Assembly: GCA_018882895.1 (NCBI GenBank)
Contig: VERF01000011.1
Coordinates: forward strand, 1-53,384
DNA: 53,384 nucleotides
Direction: 5' to 3'
From: Candidatus Kapaibacterium sp.
GTDB lineage: Bacteria; Bacteroidota; Ignavibacteria; Kapaibacteriales; Kapaibacteriaceae
A program made the translations under genes and the position numbers. Positions 37,545 through 44,347 of this stretch are shown here, one piece after another. How positions within the stretch are numbered: the first letter of the stretch is position 1; every line of letters begins with the position of its first letter. The notes beneath the pieces are model-generated. The model did not search any database. It saw only the letters and a list, made by a program, of their open reading frames with translations, and was not told the origin of the DNA.

Positions 37545-39566
37545 ATGAAGAAGCTGGTTCTCAAGACGGCCTCGCTCGGCGCCACGGGTCGCGCCTACCG
37601 CATCCCGTACGAGCAGGTCCTGAACCAGCAACAGCTGGAAGCCGTGATGCACACCACCGGTCCAGCCCTGGTGCTGGCCGGCGCCGGTACAGGCAAGACG
37701 CGCACGCTCACGTATCGCGTGGCGCGGCTGGTGGAGGATGGGCTCGACCCGGCATCGATCCTGCTTTTGACCTTTACGCGTAAGGCCGCCGCTGAGATGG
37801 TCCGCCGCGCTTCGGCGCTGCTCGACGGACGATGCGAGCAGGTAGGGGGCGGAACATTCCACTCGTTTGCATGGAGCACGCTTCGACGCTTCGGCGTGCC
37901 GGGTAGAGCCGACACCGCGCCCCCTGTGCAGATCCTTGATCAGGCCGACGCAGAGGACGTGATGAGTCTTGTTCGATCACGATCGTCGGCTCTGCGGGGA
38001 CGCAAGCGATTTCCAAACAAGTCAACCCTTCACGACATGTACTCGAAGTCGGTGAACATGTCCAAGCCCCTTGCCGACATCATCGCAGAGCAGTATTCAC
38101 AGTTCGTGGATGACGCCGAGACCATTGCCGAGATCATACGGGCGTACAACACGTACAAGCACTCCAATGGACTGTTTGACTACGACGATCTATTGCTGTA
38201 TCTGCTGGCAGCCACACGCGATGAGAAGATCGGTCCCGTGCTGCGAGCGCAATACCGCCATGTGATGGTGGATGAGTATCAGGACACCAACAACCTGCAG
38301 CATCAGATCATCCTTGGGCTTGTTGGTCAGACGGGCAACCTTTTAGTGGTGGGCGACGACGCACAGAGCATCTACTCGTTCCGCGGATCGAACGTGCGCA
38401 ACATTCACGATGTGCCCGAGACCTACCCGTCATGCCGCATCATCCGCCTGGAGCAGAACTACCGCAGCTCGCAGCAGATCCTTGACGTGTGCAACGCGAT
38501 CATTCAGGGGGCTCCCGGGATGTTCGACAAGCATCTTCACAGCGACCTGCCTGCGGGCGATCCACCTATGCTCGTATCGGCCGTCAACGAACGTCAGCAG
38601 TCGCAATTCGTCGTGCAGCAGATCCTGGATCTTCGTGAAACGGGTGTGCCCCTTTCCGAGATCGCCGTGCTGGTGCGCAGCGGGTTTCTGTCGTTTGATC
38701 TCGAGATCGAATTGCAGAAGGCCAACATCCCATTCCGGAAGTTCGGTGGACTGCGTTTTGCCGAAGCGGCACACGTAAAGGACGTGATCGCACGACTGCG
38801 GCTGACGGAGAATCCGCGTGACGTGATCAGCTGGCATCGCGTGCTGTTGCAGCTCGAAGGTGTGGGGCAGAAGACCGCCGAGCAGGTTATCGACGCGCTG
38901 CTTGCCGAGGCCGACCCGCTGGCCAACCCTGAGCGTTCCTACGGTGTCGGTCCCAAGGCTGCTTCGGTGGTGGCCACGCAGGTCTCAACGCTCTCCAAGG
39001 CGCGCACCGTGGCACGTCCGGAGCAGCGACTGCAGATGCTCGCGGACCTGTACCATCCTGTGCTGCAGGCCAAGTACGACGATGCACCCAAGCGCTGGAA
39101 GGACGTCGAGACCATCATCGGTATCGCCGGCAGGTATGCGTCAGTGTCGGAGTTCCTGGCCGACATTGCCCTGGAGCCCCCTTCGGAGAGTCTTGACGAC
39201 ATCGACCCGGATGACCCGGAGCAGGAGTTTGTGACGGTCTCGACGATCCATTCTGCCAAGGGGCTTGAGTGGAACACCGTCATCCTGCCATGGGTCAACG
39301 ACGGACGCATCCCGTCGGCCCGCAGTGCCGACAGCGAGGAGTCGCTCGAGGAGGAACGTCGGCTCTTATACGTCGCTGCCACACGCGCCAAACGTCGCCT
39401 CATGATGGTCTATCCCGCGGTGATGTTCGAGTGGCAGCACTCGGATGTGCTCGGCAAGCCCAGCCGCTTTCTTGACGACCTGCCGAAGGACATTCTACCG
39501 TCGTACTACCTGTCGGAATCCGAAGACGATGCCTCCGAGCAGGCAGCATTGGGAGAGGGAGCATGA
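37545..39566 (+). CDS. UvrD/Rep-family ATP-dependent DNA helicase
   Basis: A 673-residue superfamily 1A helicase for repair or replication restart. Motif I GAGTGKT lies near residues 46-52, motif Ia LTFTRKAAAEM near 73-83, motif II VDEYQDTN near 241-248, motif III VVGDDAQSIYSFRGS near 270-284, motif IV QNYRSSQQIL near 303, motif V STIHSAKGLEWNTV near 567, and motif VI YVAATRAKRRLMM near 609. All are intact. GDDAQSIYSFRGS resembles Rep/UvrD proteins rather than the PcrA form. No nuclease domain is seen. ATG 37545 begins ten bases after the E1 stop; the open frame to 37500 is ignored because it overlaps E1. It overlaps the next gene by four bases. Confidence 0.92.
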   Translation: MKKLVLKTASLGATGRAYRIPYEQVLNQQQLEAVMHTTGPALVLAGAGTGKTRTLTYRVARLVEDGLDPASILLLTFTRKAAAEMVRRASALLDGRCEQVGGGTFHSFAWSTLRRFGVPGRADTAPPVQILDQADAEDVMSLVRSRSSALRGRKRFPNKSTLHDMYSKSVNMSKPLADIIAEQYSQFVDDAETIAEIIRAYNTYKHSNGLFDYDDLLLYLLAATRDEKIGPVLRAQYRHVMVDEYQDTNNLQHQIILGLVGQTGNLLVVGDDAQSIYSFRGSNVRNIHDVPETYPSCRIIRLEQNYRSSQQILDVCNAIIQGAPGMFDKHLHSDLPAGDPPMLVSAVNERQQSQFVVQQILDLRETGVPLSEIAVLVRSGFLSFDLEIELQKANIPFRKFGGLRFAEAAHVKDVIARLRLTENPRDVISWHRVLLQLEGVGQKTAEQVIDALLAEADPLANPERSYGVGPKAASVVATQVSTLSKARTVARPEQRLQMLADLYHPVLQAKYDDAPKRWKDVETIIGIAGRYASVSEFLADIALEPPSESLDDIDPDDPEQEFVTVSTIHSAKGLEWNTVILPWVNDGRIPSARSADSEESLEEERRLLYVAATRAKRRLMMVYPAVMFEWQHSDVLGKPSRFLDDLPKDILPSYYLSESEDDASEQAALGEGA

Positions 39567-40075
39567 AGAAGGCCTTGTTTCTCGACCGTGACGGAATCAT
39601 AAACAAGCGTATCATCGGTGGATACGTTCGATCGCCCCTTGAGTTCGAGCTCTTACCTGACGTGGTGCCGATCCTTCTTTCGGCGCGCCAGCGCGGCTAC
39701 CTTCTCATCCTTATCACCAACCAGCAGGGTGTTGGTAAGGGGCTCATGACAACCTCCGACCTTGACGTCGTGCACGAGTTCATGCAGTCGGAGCTTGCCG
39801 CGCACGGCCTGCGCCTTGATGTCATCTACGTGTGCACGGACCTTGCCACATCCAACAGTCCACGCCGCAAGCCCGCCCCTGGCATGCTGTTGGAGGCCAT
39901 CGCCGAAAACAACCTCGACGCCGCACAATGCTGGTTCCTGGGAGACTCGCTCACCGACGCCCAGGCTGGCAAAGCCGCCGGCGTCCGCACAGCTCTTGTG
40001 GGTGATTTCTCGGCCAAAGATGCCGACATCATTGCGCCGACGCTCGCGTTGATCCTGGGGACATCAGCTCTGTAG
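39563..40075 (+). CDS. HAD-IIIA phosphatase, histidinol-phosphatase/GmhB-like
   Basis: A 170-residue phosphatase of the HAD-IIIA type. The nucleophile motif is FLDRDGIIN (Asp8 and Asp10), motif II is LITNQQGVGKG near residue 50, and the last motif is FLGDSLTDAQAG near residue 132. RRKPAPGML near residue 112 corresponds to the RKP-PG-M loop of D-glycero-manno-heptose-1,7-bisphosphate 7-phosphatase and the N-terminal half of HisB. The zinc-binding cysteine and histidine cluster just before that loop in GmhB is absent: only one Cys remains, in VCTDLATSNSPRRKP. The substrate is therefore uncertain. The ATG overlaps the helicase stop by four bases. Confidence 0.85.
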   Translation: MKKALFLDRDGIINKRIIGGYVRSPLEFELLPDVVPILLSARQRGYLLILITNQQGVGKGLMTTSDLDVVHEFMQSELAAHGLRLDVIYVCTDLATSNSPRRKPAPGMLLEAIAENNLDAAQCWFLGDSLTDAQAGKAAGVRTALVGDFSAKDADIIAPTLALILGTSAL

Positions 40076-40325
40076 CATCGTTCCATTCACGCCACAACTC
40101 ATTGCTGAAGGTGTCGTTGATTAGATCGTAGGAACTCATCCGTTGCCTTATCGGCCGATACAGCCAGAAGTCATTCACTCTCGACAGCTCATGCCGTCAC
40201 AACATGAACTTCCTCAACTAAGTCAGTGGCACTATCTTCGTCGATTCAATGGGATGCGCGTGTACCTCGTGGGTTTGTACAGGGGGCGTTGCAGTGTCTT
40301 TGTAAACTTTGATCAGGACTACGGA
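40076..40325 (+). other. Intergenic stretch ahead of the Nudix gene
   Basis: A 250-base gap. The Nudix frame is open through most of it (from TTG 40143), with possible earlier ATG starts at 40191 and 40254. The translated stretch is not recognisable and lacks a hydrophobic start. No convincing promoter, terminator or hairpin was found. Confidence 0.3.
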
Positions 40326-41450
40326 ATGAACTTCGAACCACAGAAATTCTTCATCGGTCTGATGGACTTCTTTTCCATCCTACTGCCCGGCGCTATCCTT
40401 TCGTTCATCCTTATGGATGATGTGGGGCCGATTCTTCTCGGTCAGCGCTACGCAAGGCTTACGGGTTCAGAGGCATGGACGGTGTTTCTCTTTGCGAGTT
40501 ACTTACTCGGACATATCACGTTCCTTCTCGGTTCGTGGTTGGATTTGATCTACGACTGGCTGCGTACTCGAACGCTGAATCGGCAGATCGAGCAGGTTGC
40601 TCGCAATGGACGACTCCTCTTCTGGCCATTAAGGGTCTGCATAGCGATCATTTTCAAACGTGAGCGAGACAAGGCTGTTGACGCCGCTAACATGCTCAAA
40701 AAGCGCTCACTTGGTGATCTGAAGACAGAGGATGCAGTAAATGCTTTCCAATGGTCCAAGGCCTATCTCAATCTCAATAGTCCGCAGAGCATGACGATAG
40801 TCCAGCGCTTTGAAGCGGACTCCAAGTTCTTTCGCTGCTTCACTATAGTTCTGCTAATCCTGATCGTGTCGTGGCCATGGCACAGCAACTGGTCAACTGA
40901 GGGTGTCATCTTTGCTGTACTACTATTACCCCTTGCTGTATGGAGATATATGGAGCAGCGCCATAAGTCCACTAATCAGGCTTACTGGTCCGTGATGACG
41001 CTGATCGCGCCACCCCCCGCACTCCCAGTTAAGGAGTCTGTCTCAACACCGCAAAGTGTAACTCATGCTGGTGGAGTGGTGATGCGAACCCGGCGAGGTC
41101 GGTCGCAGGTTCTTCTTGTTGAGAGCAAGGATGATCCAAATCAGTTGGTCTTACCAAAGGGAAAGGTCGAAACAGGCGAGAAACTGCGGGAGACTGCAGT
41201 GCGCGAGGTACACGAAGAAACCGGCGTGTGGGCATCCATTGTCCACGACATGGGCGAGTTGGCTTTCATGGTAGATGGCAAAGAGGTAAAGACACGATTC
41301 TTCGCGATGAAAGCTATCGGCCGTGGCATCGCGAAAGACCGAGGGCGGAAAAAGTACTGGTTGGAGGTGTCGGAGGCCATCGGAAAAGTACCGTTTCCTG
41401 AAACGCGTGAACTCCTGAAAAATGCTGCGGCTTCGATGAAGTCAACTTGA
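40326..41450 (+). CDS. Membrane-anchored Nudix hydrolase
   Basis: A 374-residue protein with a membrane N-terminal part and a C-terminal Nudix domain. Two helices near residues 10-30 (MDFFSILLPGAILSFIL) and 50-80 are followed by a cytoplasmic stretch with basic and acidic patches (IFKRERDKAVDAANMLKKR), then two more helices near 180-200 and 205-222. The Nudix box starts at GKVETGEKLRE near residue 279 and ends in REVHEETGV, with every key Gly, Glu and Arg in place, so it should hydrolyse a nucleoside-diphosphate-linked or polyphosphate substrate; which one is unknown. I recall relatives starting MNFxxQKFFIGLMDFFS with the same order. ATG 40326 was chosen for that reason. The third-position base use looks more AT-rich than in its neighbours. 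Confidence 0.82.
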   Translation: MNFEPQKFFIGLMDFFSILLPGAILSFILMDDVGPILLGQRYARLTGSEAWTVFLFASYLLGHITFLLGSWLDLIYDWLRTRTLNRQIEQVARNGRLLFWPLRVCIAIIFKRERDKAVDAANMLKKRSLGDLKTEDAVNAFQWSKAYLNLNSPQSMTIVQRFEADSKFFRCFTIVLLILIVSWPWHSNWSTEGVIFAVLLLPLAVWRYMEQRHKSTNQAYWSVMTLIAPPPALPVKESVSTPQSVTHAGGVVMRTRRGRSQVLLVESKDDPNQLVLPKGKVETGEKLRETAVREVHEETGVWASIVHDMGELAFMVDGKEVKTRFFAMKAIGRGIAKDRGRKKYWLEVSEAIGKVPFPETRELLKNAAASMKST

Positions 41451-41518
41451 ATTGACGCATACGGCGCACTATGGTTACAAGCACCTGCGCAGCATTGAAG
41501 CAACAATAGACCTACGTG

Positions 41519-44347
41519 TCACAAATACGCTTCCAGCTCGCTCTCGCTTTGCAGCAGCACCGGACGTCCACGGGAGCCGTCGGGAGGACCGACGATGCCG
41601 GTCATTTCGAGTTCGTCCACAATGCGGGCGGCGCGGGCGTAGCCGATCTTGAGACGGCGTTGCAGGGTTGACGTGCTGGCCTGCTGTAGCTGAATGAAGA
41701 TGCGGGCGGCGTCCTCGAACAGCGCGTCGCGGTCGTCGCCGGAGGAGCCCCCTGACCCGGACCGTTTATTGATCGATGGCAGCATGTACGGCGTTGAATA
41801 CCCGTGCTGCTTGCCGATCCACTCGCAGAGAGCCTCGACCTCATCGGTAGAGATGAATGCATTCTGCATACGGATGGGAAGGGGCGTGTTGCCGGGGGCA
41901 AAAAGCATGTCGCCATTGCCGATGAGGTGTTCGGCGCCGGTACCGTCGAGGATCGTGCGCGAGTCGATGCGCGAGCTGACCTGGTAGGCGATGCGAGCAG
42001 GGAAGTTGGCCTTGATCAGGCCCGTGACAACGTCCACGCTCGGACGTTGTGTGGCCACGATGCAGTGGATGCCCACGGCACGGGCAAGCTGAGCAAGGCG
42101 GCAGATGGGTTCTTCGACTTCCTTAGAGGCTGTCATCATGAGATCAGCCAGCTCGTCGATGATCACAACGATGTACGGAATGGGGCGATGTGTGATGCCG
42201 CCCTTGTCCTTGATCTTGCCCTCGCGTACGCGCTGGTTGTAGTCGAGAATGTTGCGCTGACCCGCCGCTGCAAGGATGCTGAAGCGCTGTTGCATCTCTT
42301 CGACAAGCGCCTTGAGAACGATGACGGCGTTCTGTGGCGAGGTGATGATCGACTCGTTGATGTCGGGCGAAATGGCCAGAAAGTGATCGCGCAGCGATGC
42401 GTAGAGATTCATCTCCACACGTTTCGGGTCGACGATCACGAACTTCAGGTCGCGCGGATGCATCCTATAGAGCAAAGAGGCGATGATCGTATTGATCCCC
42501 ACCGACTTGCCTTTGCCTGTGGCACCGGCGATGAGTAGGTGCGGCATCTTGGTTAGATCTGCACAGTACACCTCGCCTACCACGGTCTTGCCCATGGCCA
42601 GGGGCAGTTTGATGTTGGCGTCGTGATACTTCGGGCTTTTGATGATGGCACTGAAACGCACGATCGCAGGGTGCTGATTCGGGATCTCGATGCCCACGGT
42701 GCCCTTGCCGGGGATCGGCGCGATGATGCGCACGCCCTGTGCCTTGAGAGCAAGGGCAATATCATCGGAAAGATTTTCGATCTGGGAGACCTTGATGCCC
42801 GATGCCGGGACGAACTCGTATTGCGTCACCACCGGACCCGGCGTCACGGTGAGATTCTCAATCCTGACGCGGAAGGTCTCGAGCTTCTCCTGCAACGTGC
42901 GGGCATTGGCTTCCAGCTCGGAGTCATCAACAGCCCCCTCATCGGGAATATCAACCAGGAGTCCTGCCACAGGGGGCTTGTAGGCGATCTCTTCATCGTA
43001 GAGCGTCACGTTAGAGAGCTGCACTTCCGGTTCGATCGGAAACAGCGTGCTCTGAACCGTGATCGGCACGGGGCGCTGAACGACCACATCGGAAGGCGGC
43101 GGAGCGCTGTCGAGATCGATCTCATCCGACTCCGTCTCGTCGTCCTCGTCACGCTGAACCAGACTGATATCCTTGTTTGGATGCAGCTGCTGGAGACGCT
43201 TTTCGACCTCGCCAAGATCCACCGAAGGCGGTTCCGGTGTAGGCGGAGTTGGTGTTGGCGTCCGCTGTTTTGGGGGTTCCGGCTGAGGAGGCTGTGGTTT
43301 CAGGGGGCGAAGAATGCGCACTGATCCCGAGAGTTGCTGACCAAACGGCTCGTCGGCAGGGGGCTGCTCGTCGGTAGGTGCGAGTTCGTCGTCGTCCTTT
43401 GCCCGTCGGAGCATGGCCGCCGGCTCGTCATCGAGATTGCGAGGTCGGATGATCGAGCGGTTGCCTGACGAGAAGAATGATGTGCGTCGAAGGGTCGCCG
43501 GCTTGTCGAGTTCTTCAACCTCTTCGTCCTCTGAAGTTGCATCCGGATCAAGTGTGGGTTCTTCGTGCTCCTCCGGACCGTCGACCGGTTGACGGTCTGG
43601 CTCCTTGGTCCAGATGTACGACAGAAGCGACGACAACCGCATTCGCAGGCCATCAAGAATGTCGCGTCCGGTCTCGGCCATGCTCTTAACGTTGAGCTGG
43701 AACCCAAAGACGAACAGGGCTGCCGTAATCAGGAGCCAGATCAGAATGCTGCCGAACCTGCCCACCAGCGGCGTCGTGATACCGGCCAGAAACTGTCCAA
43801 TGGCACCGGTGGCTTCGCGAGGAATGAAGTCGAAACCATCGATAAGCTGCAACGATGCGATCAAGCTTGCCAGAGCAGTAAAAGCCGATACGGAGATGAT
43901 CGAGCGTCTGGCCACAAGTGGCGTGATGCGCTGATATCGAAAAAGGTCGTAGGCCCAAAACATGAATAGGACCGGAAGCAGGGCTGACCATAAGCCGATG
44001 CATGCCGTGTACATCCAGTTGGCAAGCACGGCACCGAAGAGTCCGATCCAGTTATGCGTCTGGTCGAACTTCATGCGGATCTCACTGTCGCCCTGGATCA
44101 CTCGCATCACATCGCGGAGCGTCAGCTGTGCATTGGCTTCATCGGCGCGGGAATAAGAGATCAGCGCAACCAGCATCAGTAGCGAGAACACGGCAAGCAG
44201 GGCAGCGCCGATCTTGAATCGGCGCAACCGGTCGACCTCGTCGTTGAGGCTGCGTTGACGCGGCCGCGGAGCGTCCTCCGTCGGAGACGGATCGCTCTGC
44301 GTCGGCGTGCGCCGTTTAAGTGGTATGTGATCCGGACGTGGAGCCAT
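41519..44347 (-). CDS. ftsK: DNA translocase FtsK
   Basis: A 942-residue septal DNA pump that moves chromosome ends to dif during division. Residues about 45-200 hold four transmembrane helices. A Pro/Glu-rich linker (about 230-480) contains RTPTPTPPTPEPP. The motor domain has Walker A GATGKGKSVGIN near residues 605-615, Walker B IVVIIDELADLMM near 728, and QRPSVDVVTGLIKANFPARI (in pieces) near 770. The last 65 residues form the winged-helix gamma domain (ARIFIQLQQASTSTLQRRL, then YARAARIVDELEMTGIV), which reads polar DNA signals. A minus-strand TAAATTG -7-like element lies at 44367-44373. The gene is divergent from kdsA. Confidence 0.95.
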   Translation of the reverse strand: MAPRPDHIPLKRRTPTQSDPSPTEDAPRPRQRSLNDEVDRLRRFKIGAALLAVFSLLMLVALISYSRADEANAQLTLRDVMRVIQGDSEIRMKFDQTHNWIGLFGAVLANWMYTACIGLWSALLPVLFMFWAYDLFRYQRITPLVARRSIISVSAFTALASLIASLQLIDGFDFIPREATGAIGQFLAGITTPLVGRFGSILIWLLITAALFVFGFQLNVKSMAETGRDILDGLRMRLSSLLSYIWTKEPDRQPVDGPEEHEEPTLDPDATSEDEEVEELDKPATLRRTSFFSSGNRSIIRPRNLDDEPAAMLRRAKDDDELAPTDEQPPADEPFGQQLSGSVRILRPLKPQPPQPEPPKQRTPTPTPPTPEPPSVDLGEVEKRLQQLHPNKDISLVQRDEDDETESDEIDLDSAPPPSDVVVQRPVPITVQSTLFPIEPEVQLSNVTLYDEEIAYKPPVAGLLVDIPDEGAVDDSELEANARTLQEKLETFRVRIENLTVTPGPVVTQYEFVPASGIKVSQIENLSDDIALALKAQGVRIIAPIPGKGTVGIEIPNQHPAIVRFSAIIKSPKYHDANIKLPLAMGKTVVGEVYCADLTKMPHLLIAGATGKGKSVGINTIIASLLYRMHPRDLKFVIVDPKRVEMNLYASLRDHFLAISPDINESIITSPQNAVIVLKALVEEMQQRFSILAAAGQRNILDYNQRVREGKIKDKGGITHRPIPYIVVIIDELADLMMTASKEVEEPICRLAQLARAVGIHCIVATQRPSVDVVTGLIKANFPARIAYQVSSRIDSRTILDGTGAEHLIGNGDMLFAPGNTPLPIRMQNAFISTDEVEALCEWIGKQHGYSTPYMLPSINKRSGSGGSSGDDRDALFEDAARIFIQLQQASTSTLQRRLKIGYARAARIVDELEMTGIVGPPDGSRGRPVLLQSESELEAYL

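What the first reader, a model, noticed from the sequence alone, without database searches (positions are those of the whole stretch)
40326..41450. Membrane-tethered Nudix hydrolase of unknown substrate
A four-helix membrane part carries a fully intact Nudix box at the C-terminus. Nudix enzymes are usually soluble, so membrane placement suggests a lipid-linked or signalling nucleotide substrate at the membrane. Its base composition looks unlike its neighbours and the gap before it is long, which would fit horizontal transfer.
Basis: partly seen in the sequence, partly recalled or inferred. Interest (0 to 1): 0.5.

Follow-up and report, generated by a model that had tools for sequence, protein, structure and literature searches.

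The report
Csx27-like membrane protein fused to Nudix
A single, horizontally acquired bacterial gene joins a four-helix membrane module, of the kind that accompanies the CRISPR enzyme Cas13b, to an intact nucleotide-cleaving Nudix enzyme, and several relatives sit inside Tc toxin operons, so it may be a nucleotide-responsive membrane effector rather than an ordinary tethered enzyme.

Summary
ORF 40326-41450 (+, 374 aa) has four predicted TM helices, then an intact Nudix domain, predicted cytosolic. Composition is atypical. Four congeners have an empty site: the flanking HAD and FtsK-like genes lie 7-235 bp apart instead of 1,443. One genome scan found seven further intact fusions (41-59% identical) in Nitrospirota, Pseudomonadota, Actinomycetota and Bacteroidota. 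The membrane half is at least as constrained as the enzyme half, which argues against a passive anchor. In 6 of the scan's 10 loci, and in one found later, the gene or its remnant lies between TcB-TcC and TcA genes of a Tc toxin operon; the TcC tails there are unrelated while the intact fusions stay alike. The window's genome has no TcB. Membrane modules without Nudix also exist. Best reading: a mobile, one-gene, nucleotide-responsive membrane effector, Nudix acting as switch or reset of a Csx27-type module, somewhat as TRPM2 pairs a channel with a Nudix domain. Ligand, pore and Tc role are inferred. New variant of a known kind.

The parts
40326..41450 (+). Csx27-like-Nudix fusion gene, 374 aa plus stop
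40315..40318 (+). Shine-Dalgarno-like AGGA, 7 nt before the ATG
   Evidence: read directly
40326..41006 (+). Csx27-superfamily membrane module (residues 1-227)
   Evidence: PADLOC PDLC01605 Csx27 E 2.6e-7, residues 12-222 on profile 6-198 of 206; 8 of 8 members match
40347..40403 (+). TM1 (residues 8-26) with the FFIGLMDFFSILLPG motif
   Evidence: motif conserved
40473..40529 (+). TM2 (residues 50-68) with SY..GH
   Evidence: S58, Y59, G62, H63 invariant in 8 members
40827..40883 (+). TM3 (residues 168-186), preceded by RFEADSKFFR (161-170)
   Evidence: R161, F162, E163, A164, D165, K167, F168, F169 and R170 invariant in 8 members
40896..40952 (+). TM4 (residues 191-209), followed by RYxxQRxK
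   Evidence: R207, Y208, Q211, R212, K214 invariant in 8 members
41007..41060 (+). variable linker (residues 228-245), low model confidence
   Evidence: pLDDT below 50 at residues 231-242
41061..41435 (+). Nudix hydrolase domain (residues 246-370)
   Evidence: Pfam PF00293 E 1.1e-13; fold like Ap4A/Ap6A hydrolases
41160..41228 (+). Nudix box (residues 279-301), intact
   Evidence: pattern search, 8 of 8 members
39563..40075 (+). left flank: HAD-family phosphatase, 3' end faces the insert
   Evidence: Pfam; homologue in 11 of 11 genomes of the genus, own included
41519..44347 (-). right flank: FtsK-like DNA translocase (named by eye from the sequence, not by a family search), 3' end faces the insert
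   Evidence: adjacent to HAD without an insert in 4 congeners
40076..41518 (.). 1,443-bp interval that holds the acquired gene; 7, 7, 108 and 235 bp in four congeners

Best explanation
The gene is a horizontally acquired, self-contained membrane effector: a Csx27-superfamily four-TM module with a catalytically equipped Nudix domain on its cytoplasmic side. Most likely the Nudix domain binds a nucleoside-diphosphate-linked ligand under the inner membrane and hydrolyses it. Ligand binding and hydrolysis set the state of an oligomeric four-TM module (pore or membrane-perturbing), so the enzyme is the switch or reset of a membrane response. Shown here by sequence: architecture, homology to the Csx27 model, the intact Nudix box, purifying selection on both halves, acquisition in this lineage, and recurrent placement of relatives in Tc toxin operons. 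Inferred: oligomerisation, pore or membrane activity, ligand identity, coupling between the halves, and a stress, defence or toxin-release role.
For: Membrane part matches Csx27 over nearly its whole length, as do 8 of 8 family members. Profile comparison with six other Csx27-like proteins of the phylum: 96.6% probability, E 6.5e-10, over residues 11-72. A bona fide member of that model sits beside a Cas13b gene (L075: Cas13b E 1.7e-227; Csx27 E 1.7e-63, with the related model tm_4 at 1.9e-81). Seven further intact fusions in four phyla keep both halves. dN/dS is 0.09-0.23 in both halves, and amino-acid identity is higher in the membrane half in 5 of 5 pairs and in 7 of 7 comparisons with the window (59.3 v 48.8, 63.7 v 57.7, 63.4 v 55.3, 61.5 v 56.9, 44.4 v 36.6, 62.1 v 52.0, 43.5 v 41.0%): a working part rather than a bare anchor. 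Invariant polar and charged residues lie next to TM3 and TM4. Modules of the same kind without Nudix exist (L025, E 1e-8; L073, E 2e-13). More distant Csx27-like modules lie beside Cas13b, an IrrE-type peptidase with an MBL protein and a type I restriction enzyme. TRPM2 is a precedent for a channel with a cytosolic Nudix domain, enzymatically active in the invertebrate forms tested (PMC6461439, abstract). Csx28, the other Cas13b accessory, forms an octameric pore that depolarises the inner membrane (PMC12669027, passage).
Against: I know of no experiment that shows a pore for a Csx27-family protein; the accounts even differ on its effect (represses Cas13b: PMC8209922, passages; said to augment its function: PMC12669027, passage). 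The match to bona fide Csx27 is remote: profile against that single sequence gives only 42% probability, E 2.6e-4, and the 96.6% result covers only the first two helices. In the three closest pairs dN/dS is about equal in both halves (0.186 v 0.166, 0.190 v 0.178, 0.221 v 0.227; dS is lower in the membrane half too), and the two window pairs have saturated dS (2.3-3.3), so the membrane half is as constrained as the enzyme, not clearly more. In TRPM2 catalysis is reported not to be coupled to gating (PMC6461439, abstract). No ligand is known. The window gene's immediate neighbours look like housekeeping genes, without a partner.
Confidence: 0.35

Rival explanations
1. Membrane-tethered housekeeping Nudix hydrolase: the four-TM part only places an otherwise ordinary pyrophosphohydrolase at the membrane, near its substrate.
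For: Nudix domain has an intact box and a fold close to Ap4A/Ap6A hydrolases and MutT1 (Ndx1 1vc8 TM-score 0.86 by target length, 34% identity; 3i7u E 8.9e-9).
Against: The membrane half is at least as constrained as the enzyme half, carries invariant charged motifs, and exists without the enzyme. The patchy distribution does not look like housekeeping.
Confidence: 0.28
2. Tc-toxin accessory: in many relatives it works in production, assembly or release of the Tc complex, for example as a holin-like release gate; the window copy is an orphan.
For: Gene or remnant lies between TcB-TcC and TcA in 6 of 10 loci of a scan that was blind to Tc, and in L072. The TcC tails there show no BLAST similarity but the intact fusions are 65-80% identical to L034's. 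In 279 relatives of Accumulibacter, all 3 intact fusions fall among the 13 TcB-bearing genomes. Lysis cassettes are embedded in known Tc operons (PMC10847048, abstract and passages).
Against: Window genome and the Arthrobacter and L035 genomes have no TcB match. Four of eight Tc- or SpvB-linked copies are broken (L038, L039, L040, L072). 10 of 13 TcB genomes in the sample lack the fusion. Lysis genes were not looked for near these loci.
Confidence: 0.2
3. One-gene anti-phage or stress defence element: the module senses infection and triggers membrane damage or depletes a nucleotide.
For: Csx27-like modules sit beside defence genes in other genomes: Cas13b, type I restriction, and an IrrE-type peptidase with an MBL protein. 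Solo gene with patchy distribution.
Against: No defence gene was recognised among the neighbours that I examined of the window gene, L033 and L037, but PADLOC was not run on those neighbours. No relative in 72,556 plasmid or 50,697 phage records, or in five scans of viral contigs.
Confidence: 0.2
4. Immunity or antitoxin to the toxic tail of the neighbouring TcC protein.
For: Position directly after the TcC tail; 109, 42 and 13 bp between the genes in L031, L032 and L036.
Against: Tails have no BLAST similarity between loci while the intact fusions are 65-80% identical to L034's, so it is unlikely to be tail-specific; it also occurs in genomes without TcB. In L034 another small ORF (175 aa) takes the slot next to the tail.
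Confidence: 0.05

Closest known systems
Csx27, accessory of type VI-B1 CRISPR-Cas13b (PADLOC PDLC01605)
   Same: Four TM helices, N-terminal [YMF][DE]...PG motif, near full-length profile match.
   Different: No Cas13b beside it, a C-terminal Nudix domain, remote sequence similarity; the Csx27 in L075 is 235 aa and stands alone.
Expanded Csx27 family of four-TM proteins (Makarova et al. 2019; paper not held, known here from passages of PMC7642515 and PMC8209922)
   Same: Four-TM members outside CRISPR. Our L076 (MBL protein, IrrE-type peptidase) resembles that description.
   Different: No paper in the held library has Csx27, membrane and Nudix together. Nudix with Tc toxin gave two papers, listed but not opened. 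The original paper could not be read, so a Nudix fusion may be mentioned there.
Ap4A/Ap6A hydrolases (Ndx1) and mycobacterial MutT1, Nudix enzymes
   Same: Fold and Nudix box.
   Different: No fused membrane module; the Tyr that I recall as typical of ApnA hydrolases, 16-18 residues after the box, is absent in 8 of 8 members.
TRPM2 channel-enzyme (NUDT9-H)
   Same: Membrane channel with a cytosolic Nudix domain, catalytically active in the invertebrate forms tested (PMC6461439 abstract).
   Different: Analogy only: a eukaryotic channel activated by ADP-ribose; no homology was tested or is claimed.
Csx28 pore of type VI-B2
   Same: Membrane accessory of Cas13b; a pore that depolarises the membrane (PMC12669027, passage).
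   Different: Homology to it was not tested here.

Membership tests
Csx27 superfamily (four-TM module) | Four TM helices | tested here: met
   Residues 8-26, 50-68, 168-186, 191-209
Csx27 superfamily (four-TM module) | Significant profile match over most of the domain | tested here: met
   E 2.6e-7, profile 6-198 of 206; 8 of 8 members; hhalign 96.6% over 60 columns; against one bona fide Csx27 alone only 42%
Csx27 proper (type VI-B1) | Encoded beside cas13b | tested here: not met
   Neighbours are a HAD phosphatase and an FtsK-like gene; the rest of the genome was not searched for Cas13b
Nudix hydrolase superfamily | Intact Nudix box GX5EX7REUXEEXGU | tested here: met
   8 of 8 members (L034 has Ala at the last place); Pfam E 1.1e-13
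Nudix hydrolase superfamily | Nudix fold | tested here: met
   AlphaFold2 model, Nudix part pLDDT 68-91 by blocks of ten; Foldseek to 3i7u E 8.9e-9 and 1vc8 TM 0.86
ApnA hydrolase subgroup | Tyr 16-18 residues after the box (recalled signature) | tested here: not met
   Absent in 8 of 8; L037 has Tyr at 15
ADP-ribose pyrophosphatase subgroup | Pro about 15-16 residues after the box (recalled signature) | tested here: not met
   Absent at 15-16 in 8 of 8; L031 has Pro at 14, L035 at 17 and 20
Tc operon accessory | Encoded between TcB-TcC and TcA | tested here: not met
   Not in the window, and no TcB match in its genome; met in L031, L032, L034, L036, L038, L039 and L072
Channel-enzyme (works like TRPM2) | Ligand-gated pore together with an active Nudix domain | not testable with these tools
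   Needs biochemistry and electrophysiology

The most novel reading that the evidence does not exclude
This is a bacterial channel-enzyme: a Csx27-family pore gated or reset by a fused Nudix hydrolase that reads a nucleotide alarm signal. It moves as a single gene between phyla and has been recruited into Tc toxin operons. If so, Csx27-family modules in general, including the Cas13b accessory, may be membrane effectors controlled by nucleotides.
Probability: 0.2. Interest if true: 0.78.

Novelty: new variant of a known kind. Interest (0 to 1): 0.52.

Why it matters
How Csx27-family membrane proteins work is unsettled. A natural, conserved fusion of this module to an enzyme class with a testable chemistry offers a handle: find the Nudix substrate and one has a candidate signal for the membrane module. 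The recurrent position inside Tc toxin operons, next to variable tails, also names a candidate component for how these large complexes are controlled or released in environmental bacteria.

Tried and rejected
Searches without a relative of the membrane part: plasmids (at an E limit of 10, searches gave only 6 and 4 records at E 0.2 or worse, mostly under genes annotated as something else), phages, and five scans of viral contigs. Full protein in 60 relatives, own genome included: besides itself only matches in or next to the Nudix domain, in 14 genomes. Pair profile A2: 1 of 123 genomes of the order and 1 of 391 of the class, in both cases the own genome; in 150 relatives of G285, G285 itself plus two partial matches with stops, not accepted. 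Of the 11 genomes with a Csx27-model match among 395 of the phylum, I dropped three (L021, L022, L026) as false on reading the ORFs; matches at E 4e-5 to 9e-4 are therefore not safe by themselves. In one search I did not count G936 (E 1.6e-4, 62 residues) as a relative.

Rejected: a tail-specific immunity role; a transposon with terminal repeats (no inverted repeats in 39950-41620; no transposase-like ORF seen in the insert); an Rfam RNA (none); a sigma-70-like promoter (none found). ORAI as best structural neighbour of the membrane model (Z 6.0, 4.8 A, 110 residues) was set aside, because Z under 8-13 means little for helical proteins; no known fold is excluded by this. The viral structure library gave nothing below E 0.6. 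The tree of eight proteins has no starred branch; the window groups weakly with Arthrobacter (81/84), so no donor is named.

Weak points: the genome scan worked in effect with one peptide pattern, FF[IF]GLM[DE]F, since its second pattern came from a block that I had joined by hand, so farther relatives are under-sampled. Some broken copies may be sequencing or assembly errors; at least L039 is in a low-coverage MAG.

Full report
What is there. The ORF at 40326-41450 (+) encodes 374 aa. An ATG stands at the homologous place in 7 of 7 other full-length proteins, and AGGA stands 7 nt before the window's ATG. Averaged over the family, hydropathy gives four TM helices (8-26, 50-68, 168-186, 191-209); the charge of the 72-150 loop places it, and therefore the C-terminal Nudix domain, in the cytoplasm (inference by the positive-inside rule). 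The Nudix domain is clear (Pfam E 1.1e-13), with an intact box in 8 of 8 members. The AlphaFold2 model (pLDDT 79.8, pTM 0.64) shows a Nudix fold closest to Ap4A/Ap6A hydrolases and MutT1. Subgroup signatures that I recall for ApnA and ADP-ribose enzymes are not met, so the substrate stays open.

What the membrane part is. No Pfam, NCBIfam or PHROGs family matches it significantly. PADLOC's Csx27 model does, at E 2.6e-7, over residues 12-222 and profile 6-198 of 206, and it matches 8 of 8 family members at E 0.01 or better. In 395 genomes of the phylum the same model rings in 11; I accept 8 (the window, L017, L018, L019, L020, L023, L024, L025) and drop 3. The 8 accepted share a motif [YMF][DE]...PG in the first helix. 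A profile of the fusion family against six of the others gives 96.6% probability, E 6.5e-10, over 60 columns; against the single bona fide Csx27 it is 42%, E 2.6e-4. That bona fide protein lies directly beside a Cas13b gene, so the model's name is sound. Other Csx27-like genes lie beside an IrrE-type peptidase and an MBL-fold protein (L076), and in a type I restriction locus (L077). Csx27 is reported to repress Cas13b, and a comparative study predicted a wider four-TM family linked to DNA uptake (PMC8209922 and PMC7642515, passages); a 2025 classification says instead that Csx27 and Csx28 augment Cas13b (PMC12669027, passage). The comparative study itself is not held. No paper in the held library has Csx27, membrane and Nudix together.

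The fusion is a family. One scan of the genome collection returned 10 loci. Seven hold an intact fusion: L031 (Nitrospiraceae), L032 (Burkholderiales), L033 (Arthrobacter), L034 and L036 (Accumulibacter), L035 (Proteobacteria), L037 (Chryseosolibacter). Three hold remnants: L038 (Halomonas), L039 (Leptolyngbyaceae), L040 (Lunatibacter). Identity to the window protein is 41-59%. It is rare: 3 intact of 279 relatives of Accumulibacter, no intact fusion in 292 relatives of Halomonas (two broken copies, and one membrane module without Nudix), none in 10 congeners, and only the own genome in 123 genomes of the order and 391 of the class by a two-row profile. The scan's pattern was built from the window and L025, so farther relatives are under-sampled. 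Modules without Nudix exist: L025 (198 aa, E 1e-8), L073 (214 aa, E 2e-13) and a broken one in G1049.

Both halves are under purifying selection (dN/dS 0.09-0.23). Amino-acid identity is higher in the membrane half in 5 of 5 pairs and in 7 of 7 comparisons with the window. In the three close pairs, however, dN/dS is about equal in the two halves, and in the two window pairs dS is saturated. The fair statement is that the membrane half is at least as constrained as the enzyme, which is more than an anchor needs.

Acquisition. In 11 of 11 genomes of the genus, own included, the HAD gene is present. In 4 of the 10 congeners the fetched stretch holds the end of the FtsK-like gene too, and there the two stand 3' end to 3' end, 108 (G009), 7 (G005), 7 (G008) and 235 bp (G006) apart, without the gene; in the window the interval is 1,443 bp. 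In the other 6 congeners the FtsK-like gene was not found in the fetched stretch, up to about 1.5 kb beyond HAD; contig ends and other arrangements were not told apart. The insert shows no inverted repeats and no convincing second gene. GC and codon use fit.

The Tc connection. In L031, L032, L034, L036, L038 and L039 the gene or its remnant lies between a TcB-TcC gene and a TcA-like gene, in the same direction; L072, found later, is a seventh case. Pfam confirms SpvB, TcdB_mid and TcA_TcB_BD domains in L034, and TcA-type domains in L032, L036 and L038; the rest rests on BLAST to L034 and L036. L040 has only an SpvB-domain ORF about 7 kb upstream. Between L031, L032, L034, L036 and L038 the TcB-TcC cores are 71-77% identical, but similarity stops near residue 2,400 (about 2,000 in the L031 stretch, which begins inside the gene), so the last 250-320 residues, the usual place of the toxic tail (recalled), show no BLAST similarity. 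The fusions of L031, L032 and L036 are 65-80% identical to L034's. In 279 relatives of Accumulibacter, TcB is found in 13 and the intact fusion in 3, all 3 within the 13. The centre genome was chosen because it has both, and the three loci are close kin, so this supports linkage but is not an independent statistic. Against a strict Tc role: the genomes of the window, Arthrobacter and L035 have no TcB match, and that of L037 is on another contig (250,433 against 134,487 bases, no shared 40-mers in 16 tested). Four of 8 Tc- or SpvB-linked copies are broken, none of the 4 others; of L035 only 283 bases upstream are held.

Mechanism. I commit to a nucleotide-responsive membrane effector: Nudix domain as ligand binder and hydrolase, Csx27 module as the working membrane part. 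Precedents are TRPM2 (abstract of PMC6461439, which also reports that catalysis is uncoupled from gating in the channel tested) and the Csx28 pore (passage of PMC12669027). Lysis modules embedded in Tc operons (PMC10847048, abstract and passages) make a release role conceivable for the Tc-linked copies. None of this is shown for the present protein.

Verdict. The find is a conserved domain fusion, new as far as I could search, in a known superfamily, with an unexpected recurrent genomic context.

Noticed in passing
L034:8951-9475: 175-aa ORF between the variable TcC tail and the fusion gene, no Pfam match; position suggests a tail-specific partner.
   Followed up: partly
L042:2026-2133 (G009): The empty site in the closest congener carries a short tandem array of TACTTCCG/TAATTCCG-like units between HAD and the FtsK-like gene.
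   Followed up: no
L076:259-3011: Csx27-like gene in one run of genes with an MBL-fold protein, an IrrE-type (M78) peptidase and an ORF that by eye looks like an HTH regulator.
   Followed up: partly
L077:391-11579: Csx27-like gene in a type I restriction locus with an nSTAND-like protein (below Pfam's cut-off) and a DUF4209 protein.
   Followed up: partly
L073:3754-6346: Membrane module without Nudix (214 aa) directly after an ORF that by eye looks cyclic-nucleotide-binding (no family search).
   Followed up: no
window 41139-41375 (Nudix part): Nudix domain also matches the PADLOC candidate family PDC-S07 (E 8.1e-8).
   Followed up: no
L062:9190-9804 and onwards (G1049): Broken Nudix-less cousin lies a few kb from another gene that by eye looks like FtsK; may be chance.
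   Followed up: no
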